Shown: positions 368 through 15,851 of the stretch, piece after piece | How the letters are laid out: every line of letters begins with the position of its first letter | Position numbering within the stretch: the stretch's first letter is position 1 | Source of the DNA: Candidatus Butyricicoccus avicola | Lineage (GTDB): Bacteria; Bacillota; Clostridia; Oscillospirales; Butyricicoccaceae | DNA: 35,089 nucleotides | Assembly (NCBI GenBank): GCA_019119435.1 | Contig: DWWZ01000154.1 | Location: 68,987 to 104,075, forward strand | Direction of reading: 5' to 3' | The notes under the pieces: model-generated | Told to the model about the DNA's origin: nothing | Database searches by the model: none | The model's input: only the letters and a program-made list of their open reading frames with translations | Translations under genes and position numbers: made by a program

Positions 368-1645
368 TTAGTGGATATACTCGAACTCCATGTCGCCGAT
401 GACGACGATGCTGCCCTCCTCGACGCCCATCTGCTCCAGGCGGTCGTAGACGCCCGCGTTCTTGAGCATGCGGTCCATATAGAGGCGGGATTCGTAGTCG
501 TCGGTGTTGACGCTGCCCATGATCTTGTCGATCCAGGCGCCGCCCACGACGTAGTAGTCCTCGACCTTTTCGATCGTGATGTCGCGCTCGGTGACCGGCT
601 GGGCCTCGTCCTCGGGCGCAAACTCGGGCTCGTAGGTGAAGACCGGCGGCAGGTCCTGCAGGCGCTCCCAGGTCTGGTTGACCAGCTCGCGCACGCCCTG
701 ATTGGTCGCGGCCGACAGCTCCAAAAAGCCATAGCCGTGCGCGTCCGCGTATGCGCGGAGCTTGTCCAGCATGGCGCGGTCGTCGCCCAGCAGGTCGGTC
801 TTGTTGGCGACAATGATCTGCGGGCGGGAGGCCAGGAATTCGCTGTAGCCGGCGAGCTCGGCGTTGATGGCCTGCACGTCCTCCAGGGGATCGCGGCCCT
901 CGCTGCCGGCGGCGTCCACCAGGTGCAGCAGCAGGCGGCAGCGGTCGATGTGGCGCAGGAAGTCATGGCCCAGGCCGGCGCCCTCGGACGCGCCCTCGAT
1001 GATGCCCGGGATGTCGGCCATGACGAAGGACTGCTCCTCGGCCACGCGGACGACGCCGAGGTTGGGCACGAGGGTGGTGAAGTGATAGTTCGCGATCTTG
1101 GGGCGGGCGGCCGAGACCATGGACAGGAGCGTGGACTTGCCGACGTTCGGGAAGCCGATGAGGCCGACGTCGGCGAGCAGCTTGAGCTCGAGGGTGATCT
1201 CGCGCTCGGTGCCCGGCTGGCCGGGCTTGGCAAAGCGCGGCGCCTGGCGGGTGGGCGTTGCGAAGTGGGTGTTGCCCCAGCCGCCGTTGCCGCCCTTGGC
1301 CGCGACGAAGGGCGCGTCGTCCGACAGGTCCTTGAGGATGCGGCCGGTGGCGCGGTCGCGCACGATGGTGCCGCGCGGCACGCGGATGACGAGGTCGGCC
1401 CCGTCCTTGCCCTTCATGCGCTTGCCCATGCCGTTCTCGCCGTCCGGGGCGACATACTTCTTCTTGTAGCGGAAGTCCAGCAGCGTGGACAGGTTGTCGT
1501 CCACCCGGAAGACCACCGAGCCGCCGCGGCCGCCGTCGCCGCCGTCCGGGCCGCCCGAGGCCACGTATTTCTCGCGGTGGAAGCTGACCTTGCCGTCGCC
1601 GCCCTTGCCGGACGCGATCTTGATATTTGCTACGTCAATAAACAT
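368..1645 (-). CDS. obgE: GTPase Obg/CgtA
   Basis: MFIDVANIKIASGKGGDGKVSFHREKYVASGGPDGGDGGRGG Obg fold, GFPNVGKSTLL, DIPGIIEGA, NKTDLL. The track ORF starts at 1696, but ATG at 1645 has the canonical N-terminus and a GAGGAG RBS. Confidence 0.97.
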   Translation of the reverse strand: MFIDVANIKIASGKGGDGKVSFHREKYVASGGPDGGDGGRGGSVVFRVDDNLSTLLDFRYKKKYVAPDGENGMGKRMKGKDGADLVIRVPRGTIVRDRATGRILKDLSDDAPFVAAKGGNGGWGNTHFATPTRQAPRFAKPGQPGTEREITLELKLLADVGLIGFPNVGKSTLLSMVSAARPKIANYHFTTLVPNLGVVRVAEEQSFVMADIPGIIEGASEGAGLGHDFLRHIDRCRLLLHLVDAAGSEGRDPLEDVQAINAELAGYSEFLASRPQIIVANKTDLLGDDRAMLDKLRAYADAHGYGFLELSAATNQGVRELVNQTWERLQDLPPVFTYEPEFAPEDEAQPVTERDITIEKVEDYYVVGGAWIDKIMGSVNTDDYESRLYMDRMLKNAGVYDRLEQMGVEEGSIVVIGDMEFEYIH

Positions 1646-12279: not shown

Positions 12280-12333
12280 CCGGCGGTATCTTTCTTCATA
12301 CAGCCCGTTTCTTGTTTGTCCTATCCTAAATCA

Positions 12334-12380
12334 GCGTGCGCCGCGTTCCGGTCCGTCCGGGGCGCGGCGTGCGCTTTTTT
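12334..12380 (+). terminator. strong intrinsic terminator after PfkB-family kinase
   Basis: 18-bp stem (4 G-U wobbles) GCGTGCGCCGCGTTCCGG-tccgt-CCGGGGCGCGGCGTGCGC followed by T6. Confidence 0.88.
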
Positions 12381-12445
12381 GCGCCCTTTTCCGGACATCT
12401 TTCGCAGGGGCATGTCCTGTGACACCGCTCTGCGAACCGTGTCAG

Positions 12446-12474
12446 TAGACAAAAGCGGCCGGATGTAGTATAAT
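12446..12474 (+). promoter_or_regulatory. sigma-A promoter for replisome-organizer-like gene
   Basis: TAGACA (12446-12451), 17-nt spacer, TATAAT (12469-12474). Confidence 0.75.
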
Positions 12475-12527
12475 AGATCCAGAACATTCGTTCGCTATTT
12501 CATCTGTCAAAAAGGAGGTGCCGCACG

Positions 12528-13421
12528 ATGGCAATGCGACGCATGATCTCCAGGCGGCTGGCCGAGAGCGACCGCTTCCTGGACCTTCCCCTGGCCGCCC
12601 GCGGCCTGTACCTGCACCTGGTCACCTCGGCCGACGACGACGGCCTGCTCGGCGGCGTGCGCGCCCTGCTGCGCATGGCCGGGGCGACCGAGCGCGAGCT
12701 CTCCGCCCTGGTCGAGGGCGGCTTCCTGCTCGCCCTGCCCGACGGCGTCTATGCCGTGCGCCACTGGCTCAGCCAGAACAGGATGCGCCGGGACCGCTAT
12801 ACCCCCACCATCTATACCGCGCAGTTTGAAGCCCTCGGCGTGGACGCGAGCGGCAATTATTTTTTGAAATCTTCCTGGCAACCCAGTATAGGTCAGTCTA
12901 AGTCAGGTCAGGATAGTCCAGGTCAGTCTAGTCCAGGTCAGTCTAGGTCAGATCAGGACAGCCCAGGCCAGCGTTGTCCGGCGCAGGCGCCCCCTGCCCC
13001 GGACGACGCGCCGGATGGGCGGATGGATGGAGCGGATGAAGGCGATGATGGGACGGCGGACGGACGGATGCCGCGCGAGCGCGCAGCGGATACGCCGGAC
13101 GGCGGCCAGCTTGCGGACTACTTTGCCCGGCTGTTTGGCTGCGCCATGGGCCGCAGCCTGCGGCAGGCGCTCGATACCCGCCTTGCGGAGGGCGTGCCCG
13201 CCACGGATATCCGGCAGGCCATGGACCGCGCCCACGCCTTCGGGCCGCGCGACCCCTGCGCCTATTTCCGCACGCTGCTGCGGCGGCTGACGCCTGCCCC
13301 GCCGGCCGCAGCCCTGGCAGCGCCCGCGCCCCTGGCCGACTGGGAGAAGGACTGGCTGGACGGCATGCGCCAGCGCCAGCGGCAGATGTCCGAGGTCGCC
13401 GCCCGGCCCGCCGCCCCTTGA
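12528..13421 (+). CDS. phage-type replisome-organizer / DnaD-like protein with low-complexity pentapeptide linker
   Basis: N-terminus MAMRRMISRRLAESDRFLDLPLAARGLYLHLVTSADDDGLLGGVRALLRMAGA...LSQNRMRRDRYTPTIY resembles the N-terminal domain of phage replisome organizers; then a GQS-rich repeat linker and a C-terminal helical domain (LADYFARLFGCAMGRSLRQAL). AAGGAGGTG RBS. Confidence 0.72.
   Translation: MAMRRMISRRLAESDRFLDLPLAARGLYLHLVTSADDDGLLGGVRALLRMAGATERELSALVEGGFLLALPDGVYAVRHWLSQNRMRRDRYTPTIYTAQFEALGVDASGNYFLKSSWQPSIGQSKSGQDSPGQSSPGQSRSDQDSPGQRCPAQAPPAPDDAPDGRMDGADEGDDGTADGRMPRERAADTPDGGQLADYFARLFGCAMGRSLRQALDTRLAEGVPATDIRQAMDRAHAFGPRDPCAYFRTLLRRLTPAPPAAALAAPAPLADWEKDWLDGMRQRQRQMSEVAARPAAP
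12881..12970 (+). repeat. degenerate pentanucleotide tandem array, consensus GGTCA, about 18 units, inside CDS
   Basis: accca gtata ggtca gtcta agtca ggtca ggata gtcca ggtca gtcta gtcca ggtca gtcta ggtca gatca ggaca gccca ggcca: A at unit position 5 throughout, five exact GGTCA, and an internal 14-nt direct repeat (CCAGGTCAGTCTAG at 12919 and 12934). Confidence 0.9.
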
Positions 13422-13444
13422 TCGTGTCCGGCTGCCAAGGGCAC

Positions 13445-13479
13445 AAAAAGCCCGGACGCCGTGCGGGCGGCATCCGGGC
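13445..13479 (-). terminator. intrinsic terminator of the metal ATPase gene
   Basis: Minus strand: GCCCGGATGCC...GGCGTCCGGGC followed by TTTTTG; a single internal mismatch. Confidence 0.8.
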
Positions 13480-13516
13480 CGGAAATGTACGGGTTTTTCA
13501 TGCAGGGATGGCCCGG

Positions 13517-15391
13517 TTAGCCGTCCCGCCTTCCCCATCCCAGCAGCAAGGCCGAGTTGACGATGACCAGCACCGAACCGGCGTTGTGCACGAGCGCGCC
13601 CACGACCGGCCCCAGAACGCCCGTGATGGCCAGAATGATGGCAACGAAGTTGAGCGCCATGGAAAAGGTCAGGTTGCAGCGGATGGTGACCATCATCCGC
13701 CGGGCCAGGCGCAAGAGATGGGGCAGAACCGAAATATCATCGCCCACCAGGGCAATGTCGGCCGCATCGACCGCGATATCGCTGCCCACGCCGCCCATGG
13801 CAATGCCGACGAGCGCCTTTTTGAGCGCGGGCGCGTCGTTGATGCCGTCGCCGATCATACAGACCGGATGGCCGGCCCGCTGGGCCGCGTCGATGTATTC
13901 CAGCTTATCCTCCGGGCGGCAGCCTGCGTGCACCTCGCGGATGCCGATCTGCTGCGCGATGCGCCGGGCGGCGGCTTCATGGTCGCCGGTCAACAATACG
14001 GGCGTAACCCCAGTCGCCTGCACGCCCGCAATCATACGGGCTGCGTCCTCGCGCAAGGTGTCGGCCAGGGCAATGGTCCCGGCCGCGCGGCCGTCCACGG
14101 CCAGATAGATGACCGTGCAGCCCGCAGCGCAGTCGGGCGCGGCCAGCGCCGTAAGCGCCGCGGCGTCCGGGACACCCTGGGCTGTGAGCAGCGCGGGGTT
14201 GCCCGCCGCGATCCGCCGGCCGTCCACCTGCGCCACGACGCCCTGGCCGGGCAGCATGGCGAACGCAGTGGGCTCCAGCACGGCCTGCGCACGGTCCGCG
14301 CGGTATCCGCGCACGACCGCCCGGCCCAACGGATGCTCCGAGCGCAGCTCGGCCCCAGCAGCCAGGGCGTAAAGCCTATCTGCGTCCACCCCATCCAGAG
14401 CACGCACAGCAGTCACCTGCGGCGTGCCGTAGGTCAGCGTGCCGGTCTTGTCAAAGGTCACCGCGCGCACCATGGACAGGCGCTCCAGCGCGTCGCCCTC
14501 ACGCACAAGCACACCGCGTCCGGTGGCGTTGCCGATGGCCGCCATGATGGCGGTTGGCGTGGCCAGCACCAGGGCACACGGGCAAAAGACGACCAGGATG
14601 GTAACCGCGCGGATCACCTCGTGCGTAAACAGCCCGGTCAGGATGGCGGCCGACAGCGCGATGACTACAATCCAAGTGGCCCAGCGGTCTGCCAGGCCGA
14701 CGATCTTGGCCTTGTCCGCGTCAGCCGACTGCACGAGGCGGATCATGCGCTGCAGCGCGCTGTCCTCGCCCACGCGCGTGGCACGCATGTCGAACGCGCC
14801 GAACTGGTTGACTGTGCCGCTTGAGACCGCATCGCCCGGCGCTTTATCGACTGGCAAGGACTCGCCGGTCATGACCGCCTGATTGATCGAGGTCTGGCCG
14901 GCCGTGATGACGCCATCGACCGGGATGGTCTCGCCGGGCGCAACGCGCAGGATGTCCCCGACCGCAACGGCCTCGGCCGGGATGACCTCCTCCCCGCCTG
15001 CGGGCGTCAGGCGGCGCGCCGTGCGTGGGGTCAGGTGGACAAGTTTCTCGATGCCCGCGCGGGCCTTCTGCACGGTCAGATCTTCGAGCAGGCCGCCGAG
15101 CTGCATGATGAAAGCGACCTCGCCCGCGGCAAAGTCCTCGCCGATAGCGACCGAGGCCAGGAGCGCAATGGACACGAGCACATCGGCCTTGATGTCAAAG
15201 GACGTGACCAGGCCAATAACCGCCTCCAGGATGATCGGGATGCCGCACAGGACGATGGCAATCCAGGCCGCGTCAAACGGCAGCGGGACCAGATCAAAGA
15301 TGCTCACGAGCAGCGCTACGCCCGACACGGCCAAGCAGGCGATCTCGCGCCGGGTGCCGCCCCATGCAAGCAGGGCTTCCAGTTTTTTCAT
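13517..15391 (-). CDS. P1B-type heavy-metal-translocating ATPase without N-terminal HMA domain
   Basis: FCPCALVLATPTA (CPC), TFDKTGTLTYG, SEHPLG, MIGDGINDAPALKKA, TGESLPVDK; C-terminal VGALVHNAGSVLVIVNSALLL. ATG at 15391 preferred over the track start at 15445. Confidence 0.94.
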   Translation of the reverse strand: MKKLEALLAWGGTRREIACLAVSGVALLVSIFDLVPLPFDAAWIAIVLCGIPIILEAVIGLVTSFDIKADVLVSIALLASVAIGEDFAAGEVAFIMQLGGLLEDLTVQKARAGIEKLVHLTPRTARRLTPAGGEEVIPAEAVAVGDILRVAPGETIPVDGVITAGQTSINQAVMTGESLPVDKAPGDAVSSGTVNQFGAFDMRATRVGEDSALQRMIRLVQSADADKAKIVGLADRWATWIVVIALSAAILTGLFTHEVIRAVTILVVFCPCALVLATPTAIMAAIGNATGRGVLVREGDALERLSMVRAVTFDKTGTLTYGTPQVTAVRALDGVDADRLYALAAGAELRSEHPLGRAVVRGYRADRAQAVLEPTAFAMLPGQGVVAQVDGRRIAAGNPALLTAQGVPDAAALTALAAPDCAAGCTVIYLAVDGRAAGTIALADTLREDAARMIAGVQATGVTPVLLTGDHEAAARRIAQQIGIREVHAGCRPEDKLEYIDAAQRAGHPVCMIGDGINDAPALKKALVGIAMGGVGSDIAVDAADIALVGDDISVLPHLLRLARRMMVTIRCNLTFSMALNFVAIILAITGVLGPVVGALVHNAGSVLVIVNSALLLGWGRRDG

Positions 15392-15411
15392 TGGGTGGTT
15401 CCCCCTTTCTG

Positions 15412-15464
15412 TATACCCCCTAGGGTATGCTTTCATTATACTCATAGGGGTATACCCATGTCAA
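15412..15464 (-). promoter_or_regulatory. sigma-A promoter with two CsoR-type operators driving the metal ATPase
   Basis: Minus strand TTGACA (15464-15459), 18-nt spacer, TATAAT (15440-15435). Palindrome GGGTATACCC (15448-15457) lies in the spacer; ATACCCCCTAGGGTAT (15413-15428) lies just downstream of the -10. Confidence 0.85.
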
Positions 15465-15485
15465 GCGAGGCAGGCGGTTTCCGGC

Positions 15486-15515
15486 AAAAAAAATCCACCC
15501 CGCGTCTGGGGGTGG
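15486..15515 (-). terminator. intrinsic terminator of csoR
   Basis: Minus strand CCACCCC...GGGGTGG A TTTTTTTT. Confidence 0.82.
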
Positions 15516-15533
15516 GTACTGTTTGGCTTCCCG

Positions 15534-15809
15534 TTATATCATGTTGGCGAACCGCTCAACCGCCTTGGTGAAATTCGCGATGGTCTGATCGGCGTCACCG
15601 TGCTCGATGCCATCGCGCACGCAGTGGTTGATGTGCCCTTCGAGCACGACCTGCCCCACCTTATGCAGCGCCGACTTGGCTGCGTTGATCTGCGCCAAGA
15701 CATCCTCACATGGCACGTCCTCATCCACCATGCGGTCGATGGCCTGTACCTGCCCAATGATCTTCTTGAGCCGGCGATGCAGGTTGTCCGCATCCATACA
15801 CTGTCTCAT
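15534..15809 (-). CDS. csoR: CsoR/RcnR-family metal-sensing transcriptional repressor
   Basis: LHRRLKKIIGQVQAIDRMVDEDVPCEDVLAQINAAKSALHKVGQVVLEGHINHCV. C34-H59-C63 has the same spacing as the C-H-C ligand set of Cu(I)-sensing CsoR. Confidence 0.92.
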   Translation of the reverse strand: MRQCMDADNLHRRLKKIIGQVQAIDRMVDEDVPCEDVLAQINAAKSALHKVGQVVLEGHINHCVRDGIEHGDADQTIANFTKAVERFANMI

Positions 15810-15851
15810 AGCTGACCTCCTCTTGTCCGGGGCGCTTGCGCCTTTTGCCTG

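What the first reader, a model, noticed from the sequence alone, without database searches (positions are those of the whole stretch)
12881..12970. Pentanucleotide (GGTCA)n array inside a replisome-organizer-like gene
Seen directly: about 18 consecutive 5-nt units with A fixed at position 5 and consensus GGTCA, encoding IGQSK/SGQDS/PGQSS/PGQSR/SDQDS/PGQ between the N- and C-terminal domains. The periodicity is at DNA level (5 nt, not 3), which suggests DNA-level function or slippage rather than selection on the peptide alone. Several phage initiators (lambda O is the textbook case) carry origin iterons inside their own gene. From memory, Firmicute phage replisome organizers often show comparable 5-residue repeats (GKDSI/GKVRL-like) at this position. 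Hypothesis: this is an intragenic iteron array or origin remnant recognised by the encoded protein.
Basis: partly seen in the sequence, partly recalled or inferred. Interest (0 to 1): 0.72.

Follow-up and report, generated by a model that had tools for sequence, protein, structure and literature searches.

The report
Phage replication origin inside initiator gene
A gene for a phage-type DNA-replication starter carries, hidden in the stretch between its two domains, a run of 18 five-letter DNA repeats that related phage genes share next to a second set of repeats, so it is most likely part of a replication start site written inside the gene, here probably a partly decayed copy left in a bacterial chromosome.

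Summary
In detail: window 12885-12974 is 18 tandem AGNNN units (A 18/18, G 17/18), encoded with codons that are almost unused elsewhere in this GC-rich genome. The gene (12528-13421) encodes a DnaD-like phage replisome organizer related to Tuc2009 Rep, whose record states that it contains the replication origin, and to r1t Pro1. Comparative tests support a DNA-level function. Most full-length homologues carry (AGNNN)5-27 at the same place. Synonymous recoding does not reproduce the arrays. In an unbiased scan of 388 genomes, half of the listed perfect 10-unit arrays lay in this gene family. A second organizer family (Lin1244_N) has 21-nt phased boxes plus AGDAA units; a third (Phage_rep_org_N) has 11-nt boxes plus mostly 6-nt units. 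I conclude that the array is one half of a two-part intragenic phage origin, probably the unwinding or assembly track. The window copy keeps the array, one iteron and an AT-rich stretch, has lost the other iterons, and stands alone in a small chromosomal insert: probably a partly decayed relic. Binding and origin activity are inferred, not shown.

The parts
12446..12474 (+). sigma-70-type promoter TAGACA-17-TATAAT (11 of 12 matches)
   Evidence: 0.2 expected in shuffles
12512..12520 (+). ribosome binding site AAGGAGGTG before the ATG at 12528
   Evidence: sequence
12528..13421 (+). gene of a DnaD-like phage replisome organizer, 297 aa
   Evidence: phrog_5708 E 6e-37, phrog_8489 E 1.3e-33; 126 phage records by tblastn
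12528..12869 (+). N-terminal domain shared with Tuc2009 Rep and r1t Pro1; presumed origin-binding domain
   Evidence: alignment A1, 35-45% identity; no solved relative
12854..12873 (+). AT-rich stretch CAATTATTTTTTGAAATCTT, the lowest-GC 20-mer of the gene (15% GC in a gene of about 74%)
12877..12884 (+). GGCAACCC, the one remaining 11-nt-type iteron box, abutting the array in the register of the homologues (G at -8, C at -3)
12885..12974 (+). array of 18 AGNNN units (the finding)
13095..13382 (+). C-terminal helical domain, aa 190-285, presumed helicase-loading part
   Evidence: AlphaFold model, blocks of pLDDT 76-92 over about aa 190-260; weak phrog_23113 match E 3e-5; fold search gave no significant match
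12280..15851 (.). insert of about 3.57 kb (this gene, a P-type ATPase, a CsoR-type repressor) absent between pfkB and rlmH in two species of the same genus
   Evidence: Pfam
12333..12375 (+). terminator-like hairpin between pfkB and this gene

Best explanation
The array is one half of a two-part replication origin of the kind that phages write inside their own replisome-organizer gene. The other half is a set of helically phased 11-nt iterons directly 5' of it. Proposed mechanism: several copies of the encoded protein bind the phased iterons through the N-terminal domain (binding inferred for this family from published Rep2009 work), extend along the adjoining AG-headed, AT-richer repeats, about one contact per 5 nt, and help open the duplex there (inferred). 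The C-terminal domain and a helicase loader then bring in the replicative helicase (inferred). In the window only the array, one iteron and an AT-rich stretch remain, in an orphan gene with its own promoter in a small chromosomal insert. It is therefore most likely a relic of a prophage or satellite origin with reduced or no activity.
For: Homology to Tuc2009 Rep, annotated as containing the origin, and to r1t Pro1; literature on intragenic ori (PMC8965321). Array at the same site in most full-length family members, GC 30-74%. Synonymous recoding fails to give the array (at most 5 of 500) in 17 of 18 array genes found by protein search alone. Unbiased (AGNNN)x10 scan: about 15 of 30 listed loci lie in this family. 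11-nt iterons abut the array in fixed register: mean lag-11 identity 0.458 against 0.275 in control regions, best lag in 31 of 35, 0 of 1000 codon shuffles. A separate family, Lin1244_N, shows the same plan with 21-nt boxes and AGDAA units. AG always on the coding strand and 3' of the iterons; no CT arrays. Local GC minimum at the array in GC-rich members. The same-genus prophage copy, beside terminase and portal genes, has 4 iterons and 12 units.
Against: The window copy has no detectable 11-nt iteron series (lag 11 = 0.25), and no helicase-loader, SSB or other phage gene lies next to it. Three full-length homologues (L014, L052, L078) have no array, so it is not essential to the protein family. 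Protein-DNA contact and strand opening are not shown. The primary papers on Tuc2009 and r1t origins were not readable here, so which of the two repeat types was footprinted or mutated is unknown to me.
Confidence: 0.75

Rival explanations
1. Peptide-level selection: the linker needs a G-[KQ]-x-[SR]-x repeat and the DNA period is a by-product.
For: Peptide repeats GKDSI, GKVRL, GQSSP recur; any (AGNNN)3 encodes [SR]-x-[GADEV]-[KQE]-x, so peptide and DNA patterns cannot be fully separated.
Against: Synonymous recoding that keeps the peptide fails to give the arrays. Ultra-rare codons are used in the GC-rich window, and Lys is AAG in nearly all informative positions even in AT-rich genes (one search is conditioned on arrays chosen for AG). 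The neighbouring 11-nt period is also out of step with codons.
Confidence: 0.07
2. A microsatellite that grew by slippage, without function.
For: 15-nt near-copies exist, and G414 (L031) has a 27-unit array with near-perfect repeats.
Against: AG is kept while NNN drifts; the same array sits at the same place in diverged genes, next to phased iterons, and units stay exactly 5 nt.
Confidence: 0.06
3. RNA-level element: a TRAP-like ring protein binds NAG triplets with 2-nt spacers in the mRNA.
For: TRAP sites are 11 (G/U)AG with 2-3 nt spacers (PMC3913778), the same pitch; the unbiased scan also found arrays before trpE (L021, L040).
Against: TRAP (PF02081) is not found in the window's genome or its genus and is absent from most array genomes; both trpE-leader genomes have it. 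The Lactococcus control genome, host genus of Tuc2009, has none. Arrays lie inside coding regions beside duplex iterons.
Confidence: 0.04
4. The window copy is still an active origin or a domesticated gene.
For: Open frame, strong promoter and ribosome site, 18 intact units.
Against: Iterons lost, orphan gene, absent at this site in two species of the genus.
Confidence: 0.12

Closest known systems
Tuc2009 Rep2009 intragenic origin (McGrath 1999, cited in PMC8965321)
   Same: Homologous N-domain, 12 AGNNN units and four to five 11-nt iterons in the linker, record annotated as containing the origin
   Different: Complete iteron set and a phage replication module around it; the window has one box, 18 units and no module
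r1t Pro1 (Zuniga 2002, cited in PMC8965321)
   Same: Same N-domain family, four 11-nt GGAACC boxes then 8 AGNNN units
   Different: Different C-terminal domain (Phg_2220_C); iterons intact; helicase loader follows
TP901-1 ORF13 intragenic origin (Ostergaard 2001, cited in PMC8965321)
   Same: Repeats inside the replication gene serve as origin
   Different: Different N-domain (HTH_36) and no AG array; not a direct homologue
B. subtilis oriC: DnaA boxes, DnaA-trios and the DnaD recognition element (PMC10201434)
   Same: Works-like comparison: duplex boxes followed by short-period repeats; DnaD prefers one strand
   Different: 3-nt trios and spacing-tolerant TnnT pairs, against a strict 5-nt AG unit inside a phage gene
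phage lambda ori inside gene O
   Same: Origin lies inside the initiator gene, with iterons and an AT-rich part (textbook knowledge)
   Different: No strict 5-nt array; unrelated initiator sequence (own knowledge, not tested)
TRAP binding site
   Same: NAG repeats at 5-nt pitch
   Different: RNA leader element needing TRAP, which was not found here

Membership tests
Tuc2009/r1t-type intragenic phage origin | Homologous N-domain of the replisome organizer | tested here: met
Tuc2009/r1t-type intragenic phage origin | AGNNN array between N- and C-terminal domains | tested here: met
Tuc2009/r1t-type intragenic phage origin | Series of 11-nt iterons abutting the array | tested here: not met
   Only one box in register; lag 11 = 0.25
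Tuc2009/r1t-type intragenic phage origin | Phage replication module around the gene | tested here: not met
   Flanked by pfkB, a P-type ATPase and CsoR
Tuc2009/r1t-type intragenic phage origin | Binding by the encoded protein and origin activity | not testable with these tools
   Needs bench work
TRAP RNA site | NAG triplets at 5-nt pitch | tested here: met
TRAP RNA site | TRAP gene in the genome | tested here: not met
   PF02081 not found in G000-G005; G000 is 80% complete
DnaA-trio element | 3-nt repeats next to DnaA boxes | tested here: not met
   The pitch is 5 nt; DnaA boxes were not searched for
Simple microsatellite | Equal decay at all unit positions | tested here: not met
   A 100%, G 94%; the commonest base at positions three to five makes up roughly 40-70%

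The most novel reading that the evidence does not exclude
AG-headed short-period arrays are a general second code of phage origins in Firmicutes: a strand-specific track, one initiator subunit per 5 nt (6 nt in another family), that starts where helically phased duplex iterons end and drives opening, a phage counterpart of DnaA boxes plus DnaA-trios with a different pitch.
Probability: 0.35. Interest if true: 0.85.

Novelty: new variant of a known kind. Interest (0 to 1): 0.62.

Why it matters
Origins inside phage initiator genes are known from a few lactococcal phages. Here one sequence rule (phased iterons, then AG-headed 5-nt units in fixed register) marks such origins in a large share of replisome-organizer genes of two families, and a looser version in a third. 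If it holds, origins could be read directly from sequence in many prophages and satellites, and the question of how DnaD-like phage initiators open DNA becomes testable with short synthetic fragments. It also explains the odd repeated peptides (GKDSI, GQSSP) in these linkers as a by-product of DNA code.

Tried and rejected
Pattern and protein scans of viral contigs and genome contigs gave no answer. PDB sequence searches found no significant relative of the N-domains. The single-sequence AlphaFold model is poor for the N-domain (pLDDT 28-54) and the fold search was uninformative. Direct TP901-1 homology was rejected: different N-domain, no array. Family phrog_5708 alone was too narrow a query (6 of 398 genomes), so alignment A1 was used. 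The codon count is biased because arrays were chosen for AG; it was replaced by the recoding test. The 6-nt AGANNN pattern is not specific: it is codon-synchronous, reads the same backwards, and also hits Glu-rich and other repeat proteins, so the Phage_rep_org_N case is weaker. Rfam: no hit. tRNA attachment site: no tRNA in the window.

Full report
WHAT IS THERE. Window 12885-12974 holds 18 tandem AGNNN units, A in 18 of 18 and G in 17 of 18. Nine-unit matches occur only here; shuffles give none. The units are coded by GGT, ATA, AGT, TCA, CCA and AGG, each 1.8-3.2% of its synonymous set in the genes of this window. GC falls to 45-52% in 60-base windows over 12841-12960 in a gene of about 74%. 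Each unit position samples all three codon positions, so the strong AG and weak NNN conservation cannot be a codon-position effect.

THE GENE. 12528-13421 encodes 297 aa. The first 145 aa match phrog_5708 and phrog_8489, DnaD-like helicase loaders; Pfam and NCBIfam give nothing significant. tblastn finds 126 phage records, mostly of Streptococcus, Lactococcus and Lactobacillus. The Tuc2009 relative is annotated 'Rep; contains origin of replication'. A review passage states that TP901-1 ORF13 and Tuc2009 Rep bind direct-repeat regions inside their own genes that serve as ori (PMC8965321). TP901-1 itself has another N-domain and no AG array; Tuc2009 and r1t are the proper relatives.

HOMOLOGUES. 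In 39 distinct hits, 33 have an array score of at least 5; other ORFs of 200 aa or more in the same loci reach at most 4, except two Lin1244_N genes, one Phage_rep_org_N gene and one simple repeat. Of ten further phage records and three plasmids fetched, TP901-1 was fetched for its own sake and is not a relative; of the other twelve, ten have 6-15 units, one has two short runs and one has none. C-terminal domains differ (Rep_Org_C, Phg_2220_C) while N-domain and array stay. Recoding each gene synonymously with its own codon usage gave at most 5 of 500 arrays as good as observed in 17 of 18 array genes found by protein search only; the exception is L017, 53 of 500. In Javan264 a frameshift or sequencing error ends the annotated ORF just before the array, and the 17 units continue.

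UNBIASED SCAN. A perfect 10-unit AG pattern was sought in 388 genomes of the class: 29 genomes matched. Fifteen of the 30 loci returned lie in this gene family. L032 and L047 are in Lin1244_N genes (Pfam), and L022 and L024/L050 lie just downstream of such N-domains by inspection. Two are trpE leaders (by inspection), the known TRAP RNA site with the same pitch, and both those genomes encode TRAP while the window's genome does not. The others are simple repeats or unassigned. The family search of the same genomes found the gene in 20.

THE SECOND REPEAT SET. Directly 5' of the array most homologues have 11-nt iterons in fixed register, for example Tuc2009 CTTGGCAACCA AGTGTCAACCA TTCCGCAACCA AATGACAACCA AATGTCCGCAC then AGGAT. 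In 35 non-redundant genes lag 11 is best (of 7-16) in 31; mean identity is 0.458 upstream, 0.272 downstream and 0.275 in N-domain controls, and 0 of 1000 shuffles reach it. At the junction G at -8 is present in 35 of 39 and C at -3 in 37 of 39. Iteron sequences differ between members while the 11-nt period stays. Lin1244_N genes show lag 21 (0.519) and AGTAA/AGGAA/AGAAA units: 12 of 30 score at least 5, 7 at the strict recoding limit. Phage_rep_org_N genes show lag 11 (0.389) and mostly 6-nt AGA units, rarely 5 or 7; this third case is weaker because 6 nt is codon-synchronous and the pattern also hits unrelated proteins. Profile comparison gives weak links between N-domain families (A-C E 3e-4 over 39 columns, B-C 1e-4, A-B none), so shared descent of the arrays is open.

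THE WINDOW COPY. It has the array, one box GGCAACCC in register, and the AT-rich CAATTATTTTTTGAAATCTT, but no iteron series (lag 11 = 0.25). In two species of the genus pfkB is followed directly by rlmH; here 3.57 kb with this gene, a P-type ATPase and a CsoR-type repressor lies between them. A same-genus prophage carries the gene with 4 iterons and 12 units beside terminase and portal genes. The window gene has its own promoter and ribosome site.

MECHANISM. Shown: anatomy, conservation, DNA-level constraint, fixed order and strand. Inferred: N-domain oligomers on the phased iterons, extension over the AG units, opening, helicase loading. Whether the AG units are read as duplex or single strand is open; host DnaD prefers a specific single strand at oriC (PMC10201434), which makes a single-strand reading plausible.

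LIMITS. Related sequences are not independent. Arrays were partly defined by an AG score. The genome is about 80% complete. The viral and genome contig collections did not answer. The primary papers on the lactococcal origins are not held, so the novelty of the AG rule is judged only against the papers I could search.

Noticed in passing
L021 (G275) and L040 (G165), locus position about 1501-1547: Perfect AGNNN arrays in the leader before trpE, in genomes that encode TRAP: known (G/U)AG RNA sites, recovered as a positive control.
   Followed up: yes
L026 (G071), 1501-1547, minus strand of the locus: A (T/C)AG array at 5-nt pitch about 460 nt before an ORF that looks like dapA (assigned by inspection); a possible TRAP-like leader, TRAP not checked in that genome.
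   Followed up: no
window 12280-15851: Small insert between pfkB and rlmH with a P-type ATPase and a CsoR-type metal repressor beside the phage-type gene; absent in two sister species.
   Followed up: partly
L118 (G237), L009 (G001), L120 (G297): Phage_rep_org_N genes with 7-nt (L118) or 5-nt (L009, L120) AG units instead of 6-nt ones; L009 has palindromic TCACAATGTGA boxes before the array.
   Followed up: partly
L170 3748-4566 (TP901-1 rep): Linker has TTTCCAGATGTGG repeats followed by ACTAAT/ACTGAT-like repeats, recalling the DnaD recognition element; may be another origin code.
   Followed up: no
L182, 10.4-kb Limosilactobacillus reuteri plasmid, gene 1501-2535: The same organizer gene with a 15-unit array on a small plasmid record; the plasmid may be a phage satellite or use this origin.
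   Followed up: no
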